A stretch of 64,000 nucleotides of DNA from Pirellula sp. (GTDB lineage Bacteria; Planctomycetota; Planctomycetia; Pirellulales; PNKZ01): NCBI GenBank assembly GCA_013822735.1, contig PNKZ01000005.1:240803-304802 (forward strand), in the 5' to 3' direction. A program made the translations under genes and the position numbers. Shown here piece by piece: positions 4,725 to 11,130 of this stretch (the first letter of the stretch is position 1; each line of letters begins with the position of its first letter). A model generated the notes under the pieces. The model made no database searches. It had not been told where the DNA came from and was given only the letters and a program-made list of their open reading frames with translations.

Positions 4725-4742
4725 TTACCTCCTCGGAGGTAA
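4725..4742 (+). promoter_or_regulatory. Palindrome that contains the recombinase ribosome-binding site
   Basis: Two 8-base inverted arms around a central TC form a hairpin whose right arm holds the GGAGGT ribosome-binding site (4735-4740). Folding of this hairpin in the mRNA would hide the site, so the recombinase could be translated poorly unless the hairpin is opened. The spacing of seven bases to the ATG at 4748 decides that start over the ATG at 4742. Confidence 0.5.
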
Positions 4743-4747
4743 TGTTC

Positions 4748-6742
4748 ATGTCTCGTGTTTCCGATCGTAATGTTTCGCCGCGCAACGGCCATACCCTCAT
4801 GGCCGGGCTCGGCGCCCGGATCAGTGGCTGCGCTAGTCAGAAAGAAGAGAGCCTCGAAGATCAGACGGACCACAATAAAGAAGTCGTCACGGAGATGTAT
4901 TCGGCCGGTCCGATCGAATACCTGATCATTGCCACGAAAGGGAAAGGGGAACGCCTGGACCGGCCGGAATTGACGGACATCGAGGCGGAATTCCGAAAAC
5001 GGTACCTCGACGTCTTCGTGTGGGAAGATCTGGGCCGGCTGGTGCGCGGCGTCGAAGCTGTGCGGCTGCTGGGCATCGCCGTCGATCACGGCACGCGCGT
5101 GATCGTGCCGAACGACAACATCGACACGGCGAACGAAACGTGGGAAGCCGATGCCATCAAGGCCTGCGCGGACCACGTAGCCCATCAGGAGCACACTTCC
5201 CGAAGGCTCAAACACAAGCTGGCGAACCGCTTCGTGAAGCACGGCGGGGCGATGTCGCGGCCGATTGCCGGATACGTCGTTCCCCAAGGAGTGAAGTCGT
5301 TCAACGACTGGCTCAAAGACCCGCGGTTCGACGTCCGCTCGAACCCGCAAGCGGACCCGTGGATCTACGACGGTGCCAAGCTCCTCCGCGAAACGCAGAA
5401 CTGCACGGCGGTCGCCGACATGCTGAACGCTCGCGGCGTCGCCGTCGGTCCGTACTGCCGGCGGAAAACCTGGGACGGGGCGATGGTGCGCCGATTCTAC
5501 GGCAACCCGTTGCTCAAAGGTCAAGCGGTACGTAAACGGCGGCATTCCGTCAAGTTTCACGAATCGGGAGTGCGGAAGTCGGTGCTCAATCCGAAAGGTC
5601 CCCTGAACTACGCCTGCCCGCACTTGGCCTACTTCGACGCGGACGAGCACGACGACTTGCAGCAACTGCTCAAGGACCGGAACTACCGATACAAGCGAGC
5701 TTCCGTCCACGGCGTGGACCCGCTCACGCGCGTACCGCGGAAGCGAACTCGCTTTCCGGGGCAACACGGTCGCTGCTGGTACTGCGGCTACCATCACGTG
5801 TGGGGCGGCAATGGCGTGACGGAGAATCTGATGTGCAGCAATGCGCGGCACTGGCAGTGCTGGAACTCGGTCGGTTACGACGGGGCCTTGTTCACCGGTC
5901 GCTTGGTCGACGTCATTAAAGCGGAACTCTACGGTCTCGACGGTTTCGATAGTCAATACCGCGAGTTGATCGAGCAGTCCGGCAGTAGCGACCGGGGCGA
6001 GGTCGCCCGGCGATGGGAACGGCTCCAACAGGACGAACTCGAACTCGCCAAACGTCGCGAGCGGTTCGTCGAAGCGATCGATAAGTTCGGCGTACAACCG
6101 ATGTTCGAGGCTAAGCTGCAGGAGATCGACGCGGACGAGCGGAAGGTCCGGCTCCAACGGCGGGCGCTGGAACGCCTCGGGCAAGAGCGGCTCCAGGTTC
6201 CGGAGTCGACCATTGTGCTGCGTCAGATGCTCGAAGAAGAATTCGTCGGTGCCGCCCACGATTCGCCGGAGTTCGGCGATTTGCTGCGCAAGTTGTGCCC
6301 TGACGTCTTCGTCTACTTAGTGCGGTTGTGCGACGGCGGCGGCTTGCTGCCGCGGGCGTACGTCCGACTGACGCTCGACGGAATCGTCCCCGATGCGCGG
6401 CTCGTGCCGGGGCTGGACGGTTTGTTGCGGCGTGAAGCGACGTTCGACCTGTTCGATGCTCCGCAGCGGGAACGCATCCGCACGGATGCCGTGCGGTGGC
6501 AGGCGTCCGAACTGGCGCCGAAGGCGATCGCCGCTAGGATCGCCGCAACCACCATCGAGCGTCCGACGGCGACCGCCGTGCAAAACGCGTTGAACCTGCA
6601 GGAGCGGATGACCGACTTGGGGCTCTCGTCGCCGTGGGTCACGGTGCTGGAGCCGCCGACCGACCTGCCGAAACTCCGGCGGCACCGGAACGCCAAGTAC
6701 CGCTTCACGCCGCTCGACGGCTATGCACGACCGCCGGTTTAG
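4748..6742 (+). CDS. Large serine recombinase
   Basis: A 664-residue site-specific recombinase. The N-terminal resolvase domain carries the serine-recombinase active-site pattern ARISGCASQKEESLEDQ, with Ser26 as the expected nucleophile and Arg24 beside it; WEDLGRLVRGVEAVRLL and the IDTANETW segment fit the rest of the catalytic fold. A recombinase domain follows (about 150-290), then a zinc ribbon near residues 340-375 (CWYCGYHHVW ... MCSNARHWQC) and a coiled-coil (about 420-500). Large serine recombinases integrate, excise or invert DNA between short att sites. The ATG at 4748 is chosen because of its GGAGGT spacing. A clear terminator follows, separating it from the Ubl operon. A long open frame on the opposite strand is an antisense shadow. 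Confidence 0.88.
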   Translation: MSRVSDRNVSPRNGHTLMAGLGARISGCASQKEESLEDQTDHNKEVVTEMYSAGPIEYLIIATKGKGERLDRPELTDIEAEFRKRYLDVFVWEDLGRLVRGVEAVRLLGIAVDHGTRVIVPNDNIDTANETWEADAIKACADHVAHQEHTSRRLKHKLANRFVKHGGAMSRPIAGYVVPQGVKSFNDWLKDPRFDVRSNPQADPWIYDGAKLLRETQNCTAVADMLNARGVAVGPYCRRKTWDGAMVRRFYGNPLLKGQAVRKRRHSVKFHESGVRKSVLNPKGPLNYACPHLAYFDADEHDDLQQLLKDRNYRYKRASVHGVDPLTRVPRKRTRFPGQHGRCWYCGYHHVWGGNGVTENLMCSNARHWQCWNSVGYDGALFTGRLVDVIKAELYGLDGFDSQYRELIEQSGSSDRGEVARRWERLQQDELELAKRRERFVEAIDKFGVQPMFEAKLQEIDADERKVRLQRRALERLGQERLQVPESTIVLRQMLEEEFVGAAHDSPEFGDLLRKLCPDVFVYLVRLCDGGGLLPRAYVRLTLDGIVPDARLVPGLDGLLRREATFDLFDAPQRERIRTDAVRWQASELAPKAIAARIAATTIERPTATAVQNALNLQERMTDLGLSSPWVTVLEPPTDLPKLRRHRNAKYRFTPLDGYARPPV

Positions 6743-6780
6743 GCGCGTCTTGATCTACGTTTCTTCATTACCTTTATGAG

Positions 6781-6808
6781 CCCCGGCCCGTCGCCGGGGT
6801 TCTTTTTT
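6781..6808 (+). terminator. Rho-independent terminator after the recombinase gene
   Basis: A 7-bp GC stem (CCCCGGC / GCCGGGG, loop CCGTC) is followed by TTCTTTTTT. It lies 39 bases after the recombinase stop codon. Confidence 0.85.
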
Positions 6809-7149: not shown

Positions 7150-7180
7150 GCCGCCGACATTCGCGGCGGCCCCTTTTTTC
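7150..7180 (+). promoter_or_regulatory. Terminator-like hairpin in the leader of the Ubl operon (possible attenuator)
   Basis: A 7-bp GC stem (GCCGCCG / CGGCGGC, loop ACATTCG) is followed by CCCTTTTTTC and ends 17 bases before the first start codon of the operon. It has the form of an intrinsic terminator yet sits just before the ribosome site GAGGAGG (7186-7192). That placement suggests attenuation, or a terminator for something upstream. Confidence 0.5.
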
Positions 7181-7197: not shown

Positions 7198-7929
7198 ATG
7201 ACTGCAACTCTGTGCGCATTCCGCGCGTGCAAATCGGATACGAACGCTGCGAACTCCCAGATCTCCGCGACGCTCCAACGCTGGCGGCGGCAGGTCGCCG
7301 GTCGGACGGACCTGGCGGAACGTCGGGGCGTGCGGCCTTTCGCTTTAGTGGGCCACCGCATCTCCGGCAACGTTCGCGGTTCGCTGGTTCCGCTCGACAA
7401 GCTGTCGTTCGTAGCCCTGTTTGACGAACGGGACGAGGAGGACCGCCTAGCCACGCGGCTCGTCGGCTGCCGAGCCCGCTTAAATGCCGAGCACCTGCTA
7501 ATCGGCGGCGCGGAATCGAGCCTGTTCGACAAGAACGTGCGTTTGGCCCCCGCCGGCGCATGCGGCGGGCGGCTCGACCCGCGCGACGGGCCGCTCTGTG
7601 AATTGGCTCTGAGCTGGGAGCAACATCTCGAGCGTGTGAATCGCCATCCGCACTTTCCCCGTCGCAATCTCCTGCGCTGGCCGCAGTGGTGGTGCCGCGT
7701 GAACACGCCGGCGGCGGACGTGCCGACGCACGACGTCGACGGGCAGCGCCTCGTACGTTTGGAAACCGCGGTGGCCGGCCGGCTGCCGATCGTGGCGGTG
7801 TACGCCGACGTCGCCGGAGTACCTAAACGACAAGTCCTTGCCGGCACCGAACCCCGTCGGTTGCTCTGCGGCGTGCAGGGGGACGTCGTTTTCGATCTCT
7901 ATCACAGTCGCTTTCGCCGTGCGGACTGA
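7198..7929 (+). CDS. Unknown protein, first gene of the Ubl conjugation operon
   Basis: A 243-residue protein with an excellent ribosome site (GAGGAGG) and GC-rich third codon positions, so it is a real gene, but I do not recognise its family. It is rich in Arg and Trp, with a WPQWWCRVNTP segment near residues 159-169, an HPHF motif near 149, and several cysteines (for example in LLCGVQGDVVFDLYH near the C-terminus). No transmembrane segment or signal peptide is visible. It lies 50 bases before the Ubl gene on the same strand. In the related PRTRC cassettes a protein of similar size accompanies the Ubl, E1 and JAB genes, but I see no clear similarity to that protein. It could be a target, adaptor or regulator of the pathway. 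Confidence 0.75.
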   Translation: MTATLCAFRACKSDTNAANSQISATLQRWRRQVAGRTDLAERRGVRPFALVGHRISGNVRGSLVPLDKLSFVALFDERDEEDRLATRLVGCRARLNAEHLLIGGAESSLFDKNVRLAPAGACGGRLDPRDGPLCELALSWEQHLERVNRHPHFPRRNLLRWPQWWCRVNTPAADVPTHDVDGQRLVRLETAVAGRLPIVAVYADVAGVPKRQVLAGTEPRRLLCGVQGDVVFDLYHSRFRRAD

Positions 7930-7979
7930 TCTCCGCCGGTCGCCCGTTTTGATTTCATTCTTATTGGAGAGTAACGCAC

Positions 7980-8207
7980 ATGAAGGTTTTGTTCATCAAC
8001 GCCACCGGCGGCGGCTTTGCCGCGCCGTTGGAGATCGCCGAGGGAACCACCGTCGGCATGCTGTTCCTGGAGCAGGTCGGCGGCGATCCCAAAAACTACC
8101 TGATCCGCGTCGATCGCTTGCCGACGACGATCCATCAGGTGCTGCACGAAGGGGCGAGAATCTCGATCACGCCGCTGAAAATCGAAGGCGCGCGCGGCGT
8201 GGCGTAG
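7980..8207 (+). CDS. Ubiquitin-like beta-grasp protein (Ubl modifier)
   Basis: A 75-residue protein with the order expected of a small beta-grasp fold of the ThiS/MoaD/ubiquitin type: a first strand MKVLFINATGG, a second strand APLEIAEGTTV that leads into a helix, then NYLIRVDRLP and a final strand VLHEGARISITPLKIEGA. The C-terminus ends EGARGVA. There is no terminal diglycine, but removal of the last two residues would expose Arg-Gly (Gly73), the kind of tail E1 enzymes adenylate. The JAMM peptidase encoded two genes downstream could make that cut. The ribosome site TTGGAGAG lies nine bases before the ATG. It is proposed to be the modifier of the neighbouring E1, E2 and JAMM proteins. The fold is read by eye, without structural modelling. 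Confidence 0.72.
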   Translation: MKVLFINATGGGFAAPLEIAEGTTVGMLFLEQVGGDPKNYLIRVDRLPTTIHQVLHEGARISITPLKIEGARGVA

Positions 8208-8280
8208 GTATCAGGGCGAGCGGCGCGGCGACCTCGGCGGTCGCCGTTGCCGCCCGCCTGCCTTGCAATCGGAGCCCACC

Positions 8281-9348
8281 ATGCCTTGGAAACCTTTGCT
8301 CTGGCGGACCGCCGTCCGCCTCGAGGCGGCCTACGCCCGGCGCCGAGCGCCCTTGTTCGGCGATCCGCTCCACTGGGACGCTTGGAGCGAACTGGTCGCG
8401 GGAATTCGTCGCCGCGACAAAGCCGCACGTCGCGGCTGGCGGTATGCGCGGATGCGGGAACACGAGACGCTGCAGCGTGAGCTGGAGCACCTGTTGAGCA
8501 ATTTGCGGGTTCTGCGCGGAAGCTTCCTGCTGCCGCAAGTCCCTCGCCTCCCCGGAGCCGCCGAACTGTACGCCGAACTCGCAGCGGCGGAAGCGGAGTT
8601 CGGTGCGGTCGTCGAGGAGGACTACGAACTGTTCGTCACGACCGAGCCGATTTCGCTGGAAGGCATTGATCTCGGTCCGTTTGAGATTCGGTTGGATCTC
8701 CGTCGTCTGGAAGAGCCGGAGCCGTATCGTATCGTGGCCGTCGATCCCCGGCCGGCGCACAGTTCCTCGGAAACCGTCCATCCGCACGTCCATGCGCAGC
8801 GGATCTGCCTGGGAGAAGGGAAGCCCGCCGTGGCGGCGGCTCTGGCCGAAGGACGCCTCGGCGACTTGTTTCAGCTCGTCCATCGCGTCCTGCAGACCTA
8901 CGGCGAGGGCTCGGCTTACGTACCGCTCGATCGCTGGTGCGGCTCGCCGTGCGCCGATTGCGACGACGCGATCGACGAGGAGGAAGGTTACTCGTGCTAC
9001 GACTGCGACGGAGTCGTCTGCGGCGGCTGCGTGCGGAGTTGTCGCTACTGCGATCGCTCGGCCTGCCATGAGTGCGCGACCGTCTGCTACTCCTGTGAAG
9101 AGACGGTATGCGGACGGTGTCTCGAGCGCTGCGAACAGTGTGGAGAAGATTTCTGTTCCGAATGTTTAACGGAAGGAGTATGTGATGCCTGTCGAGAGGC
9201 GGAGGAAGAAGAACCTGCCGGCGAAACCGAGGACGCCGGCGCAGAGTCCCAGCCTGCGATTCACGCCGACGGCCTGGGCGAAACTGCTGTATTGGCGCGA
9301 CCTCGGCACCACCGAAATCGGCGGCTTCGGAATCTCGGCCGCCGCTGA
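8281..9348 (+). CDS. E2-like ubiquitin-conjugating enzyme fused to a RING-like zinc-cluster array
   Basis: A 355-residue protein. After a helical N-terminal part (1-95), the segment 100-215 resembles an E2/UBC fold and contains HPHVHAQRICLGEG: the HP-x motif at 167-169 and Cys176 in ICLG match the HPN and active-site cysteine block of ubiquitin-conjugating enzymes. Residues 220-304 hold 21 cysteines: four consecutive C-x2-C-x4-C-x2-C units starting every 15 residues at 239, 254, 269 and 284, framed by Cys220/224/227 and Cys301/304. This looks like a treble-clef or RING-type zinc array that could serve as a built-in E3. An acidic tail follows. The ATG at 8281 has GGAG upstream. The last 164 bases overlap the JAMM gene in another frame. 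E2 identity rests on motif order and genome context. Confidence 0.78.
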   Translation: MPWKPLLWRTAVRLEAAYARRRAPLFGDPLHWDAWSELVAGIRRRDKAARRGWRYARMREHETLQRELEHLLSNLRVLRGSFLLPQVPRLPGAAELYAELAAAEAEFGAVVEEDYELFVTTEPISLEGIDLGPFEIRLDLRRLEEPEPYRIVAVDPRPAHSSSETVHPHVHAQRICLGEGKPAVAAALAEGRLGDLFQLVHRVLQTYGEGSAYVPLDRWCGSPCADCDDAIDEEEGYSCYDCDGVVCGGCVRSCRYCDRSACHECATVCYSCEETVCGRCLERCEQCGEDFCSECLTEGVCDACREAEEEEPAGETEDAGAESQPAIHADGLGETAVLARPRHHRNRRLRNLGRR

Positions 9349-9994
9349 TCTGCTGTTGATCGAGGATGTGCGGCTCCTACGTCAGCGTTGTACGGCGATC
9401 AGCGTGCAATTCGAGGACGCGGCCGTGGCCGACTATTTCGACGAACAAGTCGATGCCGGGCTCCAGCCCGAGCGGTTTTCGCGACTTTGGTTGCATACGC
9501 ATCCGGGACACAGCGCTGCCCCGAGCACCGTCGACGAACGGACGTTCGCGCGCGCGTTCGGTGCGTTTCAATGGTCCGTGATGTTCATTTTGGCTCGCAG
9601 CGGAGCAACCTTTGCCCGCTTGCAGTTTTCCAACGGTCCCGGCGGCGCCTGGGAGATCCCGGTCGCCGTCGATTACGGCCGACCGTTCGCCGCGGCGGAC
9701 CACGTCGGTTGGCGTCGGGACTACGAAACGTCGGTCATGCCGGAACCCGTCTGGGGCTTCGACGGCGACGTTCGGAACGACGATCCGCCCGACGATTGGC
9801 CATTTAGTCTTCGTGAATGGGAGGAACTTGAGGATGGGAGCTTTGGCCCGGGATCGTTTCGAGCGACAGAGCGGCTTGGTGCCGACGGACCGCCTGCAGA
9901 GTACCTGGGCGACCGTGATCGGCTGCGGTGCCATCGGCCGGCAGTTGGCCCTGCAATTGACGGCTCTGGGAGTCCCCAAGCTGCAATTGATTGA
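9185..9994 (+). CDS. JAMM/MPN metallopeptidase (Ubl-processing or deconjugating)
   Basis: A 269-residue protein with a complete zinc-binding JAMM motif: Glu44 (TTEIGGFG), then His104-Thr-His106, seven residues, Ser114, two residues and Asp117 (HTHPGHSAAPSTVD). Enzymes of this class cut isopeptide or C-terminal bonds of ubiquitin-like proteins. A basic linker (1-20) precedes the domain, which begins near SLRFTPTAWAKLL. GGAAGGAG lies six bases before the ATG at 9185; a GTG at 9182 is an alternative. The gene overlaps the E2 gene by 164 bases and the E1 gene by 161 bases. The final 50 residues, inside the E1 overlap, look less conserved in character. It probably trims the Ubl tail and reverses conjugation. 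Confidence 0.85.
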   Translation: MPVERRRKKNLPAKPRTPAQSPSLRFTPTAWAKLLYWRDLGTTEIGGFGISAAADLLLIEDVRLLRQRCTAISVQFEDAAVADYFDEQVDAGLQPERFSRLWLHTHPGHSAAPSTVDERTFARAFGAFQWSVMFILARSGATFARLQFSNGPGGAWEIPVAVDYGRPFAAADHVGWRRDYETSVMPEPVWGFDGDVRNDDPPDDWPFSLREWEELEDGSFGPGSFRATERLGADGPPAEYLGDRDRLRCHRPAVGPAIDGSGSPQAAID

Positions 9995-10505
9995 TTTCGA
10001 CGACGTCTGCCGCACCAACATCACCAGCCAGGGCTTTTTGACCGATGACGTCGGGCGACCGAAGGTCGAAGCCGTGGGGGACTCGTGTCATCAGCTGGAG
10101 CATCAGCTCGATCTGGAAACTATTCGCGATCGCTACCGCCCGACGTACCAGATCGCGCCGATCGTGCTCTGCGCGGTCGATTCGATCCACGCCCGCGCAA
10201 CGATCTGGCGCTCCGTGCAGCACCGTTGCGAGTTTTGGGGAGACGGGCGGATGCTGGGAGAAAACCTTCGCATTCTGGTCGCCGACTCCGAGCCGGCCCG
10301 GCGGCACTACGCGCAGACGTTGTTTCCGCAACAGGAAGCGCAGGTTGTCGCTTGCACGTCGCACGCGACGATCTATGCCGCCAATCTTGCGGCGGCGCTG
10401 TTGGTCCATCAGTTTACGCGTCATTTGCGAGGCTTGGCACTCGATGTCGATGCGACGTTCAATCTTTTGGCCGGCGAGTATGTCGTGGCGCCGTTGACTG
10501 AGTAG
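9834..10505 (+). CDS. ThiF/MoeB-type E1-like Ubl-activating enzyme
   Basis: A 223-residue adenylating enzyme of the ThiF/E1 superfamily. Visible hallmarks are RFERQSGLVP at the start, the nucleotide-binding loop GCGAIG (30-35), LIDFDDV with Asp54 and Asp56, Arg60, Asn62, Gln66 and Lys77 of the ATP site, and the Asp116/Arg121 pair in CAVDSIHAR. Cys174 in VVACTSHAT is the best candidate thioester cysteine. No C-x2-C zinc pairs are present, so it is a short E1. It would adenylate the Ubl C-terminus and pass it to the E2-like protein. The ATG at 9834 has GGAGG nine bases upstream; upstream in-frame sequence back to 9612 lies inside the JAMM gene and reads as shadow sequence. Confidence 0.87.
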   Translation: MGALARDRFERQSGLVPTDRLQSTWATVIGCGAIGRQLALQLTALGVPKLQLIDFDDVCRTNITSQGFLTDDVGRPKVEAVGDSCHQLEHQLDLETIRDRYRPTYQIAPIVLCAVDSIHARATIWRSVQHRCEFWGDGRMLGENLRILVADSEPARRHYAQTLFPQQEAQVVACTSHATIYAANLAAALLVHQFTRHLRGLALDVDATFNLLAGEYVVAPLTE

Positions 10506-10570
10506 ACCGCGCGAATCTGTTTAAAACCGGATTGCCGTTAGGCAAGCCGTGTTGATTGTTTAACCATCGG

Positions 10571-10607
10571 CGGGCCGTCGCTTACGCGGCGGCCCGTGGT
10601 CATTTTT
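10571..10607 (+). promoter_or_regulatory. Terminator-like hairpin between E1 and the small genes
   Basis: CGGGCCG (10571-10577) pairs with CGGCCCG (10590-10596), and ATTTTT follows a few bases later, just before the ribosome site of the next gene. It could lower expression of the two small downstream genes. Confidence 0.4.
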
Positions 10608-10622
10608 GTAGGAGTTGCTGCT

Positions 10623-10811
10623 ATGAGTCCGCCCGAGTTGGAACGCGCCGTGGCGTTAGCTACCGGCGAATCGCGGCGAGAAGTCCGGCGTCGCGGCTTT
10701 CAGCCGCTGCCGCTCGCCGAGGAGCCCCCCGACGACCACGATACGAATGTCGGCGTCGTCGATTGGGATCTGCTCCAAGCCGAGCGTCCCGTGCTGTTTC
10801 CCGTGACCTGA
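10623..10811 (+). CDS. Small conserved-type protein (62 residues) in the Ubl operon
   Basis: A 62-residue protein with TAGGAG upstream of the ATG. It has an N-terminal helix SPPELERAVALATGES, a basic patch RREVRRRGF, an acidic middle EEPPDDHD and a C-terminal segment VDWDLLQAERPVLFPVT. Small planctomycete proteins with a similar TGES-RRRGF pattern are familiar to me, but I know of no function. No cysteines, signal or membrane segment are present. It sits 117 bases after the E1 gene and 79 bases before the membrane mini-protein, so it is probably part of the same operon. It could be a substrate or adaptor; this is speculation. Confidence 0.6.
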   Translation: MSPPELERAVALATGESRREVRRRGFQPLPLAEEPPDDHDTNVGVVDWDLLQAERPVLFPVT

Positions 10812-10890
10812 CGGAAACGGCGTTACCCATTAACCGAGCGTCTCTGTTTCGAGCGCTCGTCCCACTCTCGCTTTCGCAAAGGAGCGAACA

Positions 10891-11064
10891 TTGAGAGCGC
10901 GACAAAAACTCAATCGAGCCTACGTCAACGGCGCGCTGTTGTGCGCCGCCGGCGCGGGACTCGTCACCCATTCCGGCCTCATCTTCCTCATCGTCTTGGC
11001 GGCCTGCGTGGCCCTGAACGTGAAGGATCGTTCGATCCGTTCGGATCGCAATCAGAAGTTCTAA
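10891..11064 (+). CDS. Single-span membrane mini-protein (57 residues) in the Ubl operon
   Basis: Begins with TTG at 10891, which follows AAAGGAGCG at good spacing. The 57 residues start with a basic segment (MRARQKLNRAYVNG) and continue with one hydrophobic stretch from about residue 15 to 42 (ALLCAAGAGLVTHSG then LIFLIVLAACVALNV). It ends in a charged tail. A basic head followed by one transmembrane helix suggests an inner-membrane protein with its N-terminus inside. It is the last gene before a strong terminator, so it appears to close the Ubl operon. Function unknown; a membrane anchor or effector role is conceivable. Confidence 0.6.
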   Translation: MRARQKLNRAYVNGALLCAAGAGLVTHSGLIFLIVLAACVALNVKDRSIRSDRNQKF

Positions 11065-11088: not shown

Positions 11089-11130
11089 AGTTCGGCGCCG
11101 CCCTGCGGGGCGGCGCCGAACTGCTTTTGC
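11089..11130 (+). terminator. Strong intrinsic terminator closing the Ubl operon
   Basis: A perfect 15-bp stem (arms 11089-11103 and 11108-11122, loop TGCG) is followed by GCTTTTGC. It lies 25 bases after the last small gene. Confidence 0.8.

What the first reader, a model, noticed from the sequence alone, without database searches (positions are those of the whole stretch)
7198..11064. Compact seven-gene ubiquitin-like conjugation operon in a planctomycete
Seen directly: a small beta-grasp protein, a protein with an HP-x...ICLG E2-type block, a complete JAMM motif, and a GxGxxG ThiF-type E1, all co-directional between a leader hairpin and a strong terminator. Known: E1, E2, JAMM and Ubl genes together define bacterial Ubl-conjugation cassettes such as Bil and PRTRC. 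Inference: this is a working Ubl ligation and removal pathway, possibly for defence, with an unusual gene set and E2 architecture.
Basis: partly seen in the sequence, partly recalled or inferred. Interest (0 to 1): 0.95.

Follow-up and report, generated by a model that had tools for sequence, protein, structure and literature searches.

The report
Mobile bacterial ubiquitin-like tagging cassette
A planctomycete genome holds three copies of a compact gene set that is predicted to attach a small ubiquitin-like tag to proteins and remove it again, with the predicted carrier enzyme fused to a cysteine-rich array that would serve as its own ligase; two of the three copies sit beside a recombinase gene, so the set likely travels on mobile DNA.

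Summary
Window 7198-11064 encodes seven conserved genes: G1, Ubl, E2, JAMM, E1 and two small proteins. Core order Ubl-E2-JAMM-E1 recurs in other Planctomycetota. The Ubl is ThiS-like (14 of 16 members match Pfam ThiS); 53 of 53 end in [K/N][I/V][E/Q/D]GA plus 0-35 residues, so trimming by the JAMM is likely. The E2 protein keeps its candidate Cys in 97 of 98 homologues and models as an E2-type fold followed by a Cys array (fold statistics weak). E1 is one ThiF domain. Copies are sporadic, up to seven per genome, often beside large serine recombinases (own genome: both lie beside cassettes), once in a prophage-like contig. A 'long' form adds DUF1257/DUF2997-type proteins and a Cdc48/FtsH-like AAA+ ATPase. 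Strong hairpins recur between Ubl and E2 (47 of 53) and before P6 (35 of 37). No Bil, PRTRC or CBASS profile is met. Defence is plausible, but a partial flank scan gave no clear support. Verdict: new variant of bacterial Ubl-conjugation cassettes; chemistry likely, role open.

The parts
4742..6742 (+). Large serine recombinase (P0008), upstream neighbour of the cassette
   Evidence: Pfam Resolvase 1.1e-8 and Recombinase 1.2e-4; PHROG integrase phrog_95 1.2e-23; one of only two matches of this profile at E 1e-10 in the own genome, both beside cassettes
6778..6802 (+). Terminator-like hairpin after the recombinase gene
   Evidence: 10-bp stem plus TTTTTT, z -4.6
7150..7170 (+). Weak hairpin with T-run just ahead of gene 1
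   Evidence: z -1.3; by eye not obvious in the five other G1 leaders printed
7198..7929 (+). Gene 1 (G1, P0001), 243 aa, unnamed family that accompanies the short-form cassette
   Evidence: 138 homologues among 7994 scored candidates; all 9 matches in same-genus genomes lie beside a cassette; no Pfam/NCBIfam/PADLOC/PDB match
7980..8207 (+). Ubiquitin-like modifier, 75 aa, ends KIEGARGVA
   Evidence: family matches Pfam ThiS in 14 of 16 members, though not the window member itself; [KN][IV][EQD]GA in 53 of 53
8214..8261 (+). Strong hairpin between Ubl and E2 genes, proposed attenuator (no T-run here)
   Evidence: -38.8 against -27.2 kcal/mol, mean of 5 shuffles; similar hairpins in 47 of 53 loci
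8281..9348 (+). E2-type protein fused to a Cys array (P0003), 355 aa
   Evidence: HPH[VIL]..C in 56 of 56 loci, Cys in 97 of 98 homologues; AF2 model pLDDT 87.8, pTM 0.66; Foldseek list rich in E2s
8557..8895 (+). E2-like domain (residues 93-205), candidate catalytic Cys176 at 8806-8808
8950..9192 (+). Cys array (residues 224-304), resembling PHD/LIM/FYVE/B-box fingers
   Evidence: weak matches; at least 8 CxxC in 55 of 56 proteins
9185..9994 (+). JAMM metallopeptidase (P0004); HTHPG at 9494-9508
   Evidence: Pfam Prok-JAB 4.4e-4, below cut-off; E44, H104, H106, S114, D117 invariant in 14 aligned
9834..10505 (+). Minimal E1 / ThiF adenylation domain (P0005), 223 aa
   Evidence: Pfam ThiF 2.9e-19; GxGxxGRQ in 47 of 48, the other GxGxxGRP; invariant Cys174 in 13 aligned
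10570..10597 (+). Hairpin plus T-rich stretch about 22 nt ahead of P6, proposed attenuator
   Evidence: z -4.7; 35 of 37 P6 leaders have one
10623..10811 (+). P6 (P0006), 62-aa conserved small protein
   Evidence: conserved in short and long forms; no named family
10891..11064 (+). P7 (P0007), 57-aa hydrophobic small protein, TTG start
   Evidence: 52-79% identical in L027, L041, L042
11089..11122 (+). Terminator of the operon
   Evidence: 15-bp stem, z -6.6

Best explanation
This is a predicted self-contained ubiquitin-like conjugation and removal cassette: the JAMM enzyme would trim the Ubl tail, the ThiF-type E1 would activate it, the E2-type protein would likely carry it on Cys176 and pass it to targets, and the JAMM would take it off again. 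Shown by sequence: the four-gene core, its conserved motifs and order, its patchy multi-copy distribution, and its frequent position beside serine recombinases. Inferred: thioester chemistry, the Cys array binding zinc and acting as a built-in E3 or substrate reader, the Gly (or the following Ala) as the conjugated end, and the hairpin after the Ubl gene lowering transcription so that modifier exceeds enzymes. In the sister long form a Cdc48/FtsH-like AAA+ ATPase would act on the modified proteins; in the window's short form G1 occupies the upstream position. Role: most likely a mobile accessory module used in conflict between bacteria, phages and other elements (my estimate 0.4 for host defence, 0.3 for an element's own use, rest other).
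For: Core order conserved in loci titled Pirellulales, Planctomycetaceae and Phycisphaerae. In the nine genomes with full-length E2 matches, Ubl matches agree genome by genome, 18 and 18. Ubl matches ThiS in 14 of 16; EGA-type end in 53 of 53, with 29-36 residues after the Gly in four; two metagenomic homologues are head-to-tail Ubl repeats joined at EGA. E2: HPH[VIL]..C in 56 of 56 loci, Cys in 97 of 98 homologues; AF2 model with helix, strand meander, active-site loop and two helices; 27 of 50 Foldseek rows shown are E2 entries or E2-E3 modules. JAMM motif in 50 of 55, four of the five misses being cut by a contig end or an insertion; E1 GxGxxG 48 of 48. Mobility. Hairpins. Long-form partners.
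Against: No Foldseek hit reaches E 1e-3 (0 of 328). In Pfam none of the families shown (25 of 31, E up to 0.1) for 98 homologues is an E2 model. The HPN Asn of classical E2s (recalled) is His here. One homologue, P0066, has Ser at 176. E1 is small, without a separate Cys domain; Cys174 is only a candidate. A Cys array alone does not show E3 activity or zinc binding. Some copies are broken or incomplete: L035 lacks the Ubl, L040 lacks JAMM and E1, L072 has a degenerate JAMM. No serine recombinase of this profile lies within 15 kb of any of seven G029 copies. Nothing here measures conjugation, expression or phenotype.
Confidence: 0.72

Rival explanations
1. The cassette is an anti-phage defence system in the manner of Bil or CBASS, tagging phage or host proteins on infection.
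For: Patchy, multi-copy, mobile distribution; prophage-like carrier; the own genome's related P6 unit lies near a type I methylase-like ORF (named from its sequence, not by a profile) and a PD-(D/E)XK nuclease.
Against: PADLOC gives no hit for G1, Ubl, E2, P6 or P7; E1 and JAMM hit only general E1-E2/JAB models and BilD weakly. Among the families shown for 78 flank proteins only kinases recur, 3 of 78; the scan covered 78 of 237 flank proteins and lists were capped.
Confidence: 0.4
2. The cassette serves the mobile element itself: integration control, element maintenance or counter-defence, as is supposed for PRTRC-type cassettes on plasmids (recalled).
For: Both large serine recombinases of the own genome lie within 5 kb of cassettes (P 1.9e-5) and 6 of 8 in G291 within 15 kb (P 2.8e-9); distances chosen afterwards.
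Against: G029: 0 of 4 recombinases near its seven copies; G291: 0 of 8 within 5 kb; no plasmid record matches the window at DNA level; the recombinase profile was built from cassette neighbours.
Confidence: 0.3
3. It is a sulfur-carrier or cofactor pathway (ThiS/MoaD with ThiF and a JAMM peptidase), not protein conjugation.
For: Sources name relatives of the Ubl 'molybdopterin converting factor' or ThiS; E1 scores best against ThiF models.
Against: E1 is far below the ThiF/MoeB cut-offs (best 59 of 159 bits); an E2-type protein with a near-invariant Cys is linked in nearly every locus; no gene recognised as cofactor synthesis was among the conserved neighbours that were scanned.
Confidence: 0.12
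4. The 'E2' is an inactive RWD/UEV-like scaffold and the Cys array is only structural.
For: Weak fold statistics; HPN motif altered; catalytically inactive E2-like domains occur in type 6e operons (PMC1779556, section read).
Against: HPH and Cys176 are kept in 56 of 56 loci and 97 of 98 homologues at 32-61% identity to the window protein.
Confidence: 0.12

Closest known systems
Prokaryotic E1/E2/JAB/Ubl operon types 6a-6e (Iyer, Burroughs, Aravind 2006, PMC1779556, section 14 read)
   Same: Same four activities in one operon; type 6d also has a small Ubl with a conserved C-terminal Gly and a separate E2-like protein beside JAB and E1
   Different: Types 6a, 6b, 6c and 6e mostly fuse E1 to an E2 or JAB domain; the 6d E2 lacks the usual His and its JAB has a JAB-N domain. 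Here all four are separate and the E2 has HPH and a Cys array; the terms planctomycet, pirellula and gemmata are not in that paper's text
Bil (BilABCD)
   Same: Separate Ubl, E2, JAMM, E1
   Different: BilA has two Ubl domains and BilD an inactive plus an active adenylation domain (passages of PMC11354881); here one Ubl domain and a 223-aa E1 with one ThiF domain; only a weak BilD hit, 4.1e-6
CBASS Cap2/Cap3
   Same: E1, E2 and JAB activities; a C-terminal Gly or Ala is used (passages of PMC10097602)
   Different: No cGAS-like gene was found among the seven window proteins; E1 and E2 are separate; a beta-grasp-type Ubl is present
FtsH ternary systems with a Ubl tri-ligase (eLife 2020, PMC7159879, passages)
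   Same: Ubl system reported from planctomycetes among others, with JAB, E1, a RING-type protein and AAA+ ATPase domains
   Different: There Ubl and E2 are fused and RING is separate, with MoxR-vWA and a caspase-like effector; here Ubl is free and E2 is fused to the Cys array
PRTRC
   Same: ThiF-type E1 with Ubl/E2/JAMM-type genes (gene set recalled)
   Different: Only a sub-threshold ThiF hit, 33 of 145 bits; the other window proteins hit no PRTRC model

Membership tests
Bacterial Ubl-conjugation cassette (general) | beta-grasp Ubl, E1, E2 and JAMM encoded together | tested here: met
   linkage; E2 and Ubl folds are predictions
Bacterial Ubl-conjugation cassette (general) | covalent transfer of Ubl to targets | not testable with these tools
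   needs biochemistry
Bil | profile match to BilA-D | tested here: not met
   only BilD at 4.1e-6 on E1; no Bil hit for Ubl, E2, JAMM
Bil | two-domain BilA and two-domain BilD | tested here: not met
   Ubl 75 aa, E1 223 aa with one ThiF match
Bub | Bub gene set | not tested
   no model under that name was met; E1 profile matches the BubCD chain at 8.5e-9, among 75 E1/ThiF-type chains
PRTRC | match to the NCBIfam PRTRC models | tested here: not met
   TIGR03736 33.4 of 144.75 bits, no other PRTRC model; cores of L037 and L058 likewise
CBASS type with Cap2/Cap3 | cGAS-like CD-NTase in the operon, Cap2 E1-E2 fusion | tested here: not met
   E1 and E2 are separate; no CD-NTase model among hits of the seven window proteins; Cap3 hit 14.3 of 200 bits
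ThiS/MoaD sulfur carriers | C-terminal Gly-Gly (recalled) and cofactor gene context | tested here: not met
   end is [E/Q/D]GA plus 0-35 residues in 53 of 53; no cofactor gene recognised among the neighbours scanned
Prokaryotic RING-E3 Ubl systems (Burroughs 2011, known here only as a citation) | RING finger with a two-zinc cross-brace | tested here: inconclusive
   Cys array resembles B-box/PHD/FYVE/LIM fingers weakly; that paper was not held

The most novel reading that the evidence does not exclude
A planctomycete mobile ubiquitin-like system in which one polypeptide is both E2 and RING-like E3, the modifier is made as a tailed or tandem precursor, RNA hairpins set the modifier-to-enzyme ratio, and a sister form adds a Cdc48-type segregase: a whole ubiquitin pathway in miniature that moves between genomes and phages.
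Probability: 0.35. Interest if true: 0.9.

Novelty: new variant of a known kind. Interest (0 to 1): 0.72.

Why it matters
If active, it would give a compact model of how E2 and E3 activities can share one chain, and a bacterial pathway with modifier, ligase, isopeptidase and, in the long form, an unfoldase. 7806 of 7999 scored candidates are related to the Ubl, and those with informative names in the list carry sulfur-carrier names, so a large family may be mislabelled. Because copies are sporadic and multi-copy, function can be tested by comparing strains with and without them.
Full report
1. Observation. The seven ORFs are as stated, on one strand, between a recombinase followed by a terminator-like hairpin (6778-6802) and a strong terminator at 11089-11122. 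tblastn against 20 stretches around other copies found all seven genes in the same order in L027 and L041 (52-80% identity) and L042 (40-79%), and G1-Ubl-E2-JAMM running to the contig end in L043 and L044. Gene 1, P6 and P7 are therefore real genes, although no library searched names them (G1).

2. Ubl. The window protein alone hits nothing in Pfam, but 14 of 16 aligned members hit ThiS, best 2e-5. Every Ubl found (53 of 53 loci, eight known duplicate loci left out) has [KN][IV][EQD]GA near its end, followed by nothing more (9 loci) or by up to 35 further residues; four have 29 or 36 residues after the Gly. Two metagenomic homologues are tandem Ubls joined at this motif. This is what a precursor trimmed by a peptidase would look like; that the JAMM does it is inference. 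CBASS work shows that a C-terminal Gly or Ala can be used by a bacterial E1-E2 enzyme (passages of PMC10097602), so cleavage after Gly or after Ala both remain open.

3. E2-type protein. 101 homologues were found among 7997 scored candidates; those with a protein name are called hypothetical protein. For 98 homologues no E2 model is among the Pfam families shown (25 of 31). An AF2 model from 98 sequences has pLDDT 87.8 and pTM 0.66: three N-terminal helices, then helix 93-107, strands 110-153, a loop with HPHV 167-170 and Cys176, helices 178-190 and 193-205, then the Cys array. Of 50 Foldseek rows shown I count 27 E2 entries or E2-E3 modules by title (Pex4p recalled as an E2; single chains not checked; UBE2H target TM 0.47, UBE2S 0.50) and 10 PHD, LIM, FYVE or Rim2 zinc fingers; none of 328 matches reaches E 1e-3. 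HPH[VIL] plus Cys is kept in 56 of 56 loci and at least eight CxxC in 55 of 56; among 98 homologues Cys176 is kept in 97, P0066 having QPH and Ser. I read it as an E2 with a RING-like array in one chain; zinc binding and the E3 role are inference.

4. JAMM and E1. The JAMM ligand motif is present in 50 of 55; L072 is truly degenerate, L044 and L046 run into contig ends, and L043 and L074 are interrupted at the HTHP codons. E1 has GxGxxGRQ in 47 of 48 and GxGxxGRP in L071, matches ThiF at 2.9e-19, and its profile matches MoeB, ThiF, eukaryotic E1 and BubCD chains in the PDB. No second domain was matched; Cys174 is invariant in 13 aligned.

5. Two forms and a plug-in core. The short form of the window (G1-Ubl-E2-JAMM-E1-P6-P7) was seen in same-genus genomes, and a cut G1-Ubl pair in G006 of the same family. 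The long form runs C10, DUF1257 (1.3e-3, below cut-off), DUF2997 (7.7e-16), an AAA+ ATPase (Pfam AAA 1.1e-28; best NCBIfam CDC48 2.7e-25, far below cut-off), C7, C12, P6, then Ubl-E2-JAMM-E1, often with a further C33 gene (labelled TOPRIM by me from its sequence; no profile hit). The AAA+ gene is in 7 of 38 non-duplicate loci and in 12 of the 15 E2-bearing loci. L057, L059, L060 and L061 have instead a ~541-aa protein with a weak, sub-threshold HATPase match, and a protein with a DUF2958 match, both tested in L057 only. Long-form genes with P6 but without the Ubl core lie in L092 and L094 (L095 shows C7-C12-P6); an unnamed ~450-aa protein follows P6 in L092, L093 and L095, and in L036 (there split over two frames) it follows E1, so that the Ubl core lies between. 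The four-gene core thus behaves as a plug-in. Exceptions: L035 lacks the Ubl, L040 lacks JAMM and E1 after E2.

6. Distribution and mobility. E2 matches: 8 of 57 genomes, own included; full-length in 9 of 294 genomes of the phylum, own included, the other 9 of 18 matching genomes having Cys-array matches only; Ubl in 13 of 392. Copies per genome: own 3, G291 6, G029 7. In G029, 14 of 21 pairs of copies share at most 1 kb outside the core in 20-kb stretches; the other seven share upstream partners, up to 6.4 kb. A large serine recombinase is present in 14 of 38 non-duplicate loci. Matches of that profile at E 1e-10: own genome 2, both within 5 kb of a cassette (P 1.9e-5); G291 8, none within 5 kb, 6 within 15 kb (P 2.8e-9); G029 4, none within 15 kb. 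Distances were chosen after seeing the data and the profile was built from cassette neighbours, so these P values are indicative only. Of six genomes searched, three were counted. One IMG/VR contig, the only relative among 52 candidate stretches, carries portal, tape-measure and two integrase genes beside Ubl-E2-JAMM and the start of E1.

7. RNA signals. Best hairpin followed by a T-rich stretch in the 90 nt ahead of P6: 35 of 37 at -12 kcal/mol or better, median -28.5 (exceptions L032, L085). Other leaders: Ubl 17 of 53 (median -7.7), JAMM 8 of 29 (-7.8), E1 12 of 46 (-3.2), C12 7 of 25 (0.0), but E2 31 of 43 (-26.0). In the 85 nt after the Ubl stop, 47 of 53 loci have a hairpin at least 5 kcal/mol better than the mean of five mononucleotide shuffles; exceptions L071, L073 (contig end), L081, L082, L089, L090 (counted by me). 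Position is kept while sequence differs between lineages. I take these as attenuators that favour modifier over enzymes; untested. By eye the G029 and window Ubl-E2 hairpins lack a T-run, and in L081, L086 and L088 another small frame lies in that interval.

8. Copies in one genome. In G029 six Ubls are 96-100% identical while E2s are 55-97%, JAMMs 76-98% and E1s 82-94%: one modifier with diverging ligases, or recent gene conversion of the Ubl. In the own genome the three Ubls are 55-100% identical to the window's, so this is not general.

9. Literature. Section 14 of PMC1779556 was read; of PMC7159879, PMC11354881, PMC10097602 and PMC10936438 only term passages were seen. None describes this arrangement in what was seen; the 2011 RING paper was not held.

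Noticed in passing
L043:11348-11468 and L074:1-121: In two G001 copies the JAMM gene is interrupted at the HTHP codons by the same 121-base sequence, which runs into the contig end and matches the 5' part of a group II intron in L043 (RF02012, 31.5 bits, gathering 34).
   Followed up: partly
L079:2377-5356: About 3 kb with an inverted serine recombinase is inserted in the DUF1257 gene relative to L078 and L077, with a short A-rich overlap at the ends.
   Followed up: partly
L072:8165-9933: P6, a distant G1 and a JAMM relative without the HTHP and S-D ligands, near a tyrosine-recombinase-like ORF (named by me from its sequence): a decayed or repurposed unit.
   Followed up: partly
L093 (own genome, C3:25000-40000): P6 followed by the unnamed ~450-aa protein and, further on, a PD-(D/E)XK nuclease; upstream a weak DUF932 match and a type I methylase-like ORF; no Ubl core in the stretch.
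   Followed up: partly
P0228, P0229: Head-to-tail Ubl repeats joined at the EGA motif in metagenomic proteins; no match covering both repeats in 392 genomes.
   Followed up: partly
L057, L059, L060, L061: Cassettes with Ubl-E2-JAMM-E1 behind a ~541-aa protein with a weak HATPase match and a DUF2958-type protein.
   Followed up: no
window:9185-9348 and 9834-9994: E2/JAMM and JAMM/E1 reading frames overlap by about 160 nt each, and the overlaps recur in the short-form relatives L027, L041, L042.
   Followed up: no
P0066: An E2-type homologue with QPH and Ser in place of HPH and Cys176, probably inactive.
   Followed up: no
Ubl family: 7806 of 7999 scored candidates are homologues of this Ubl; informative names in the list are molybdopterin converting factor or ThiS.
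   Followed up: no
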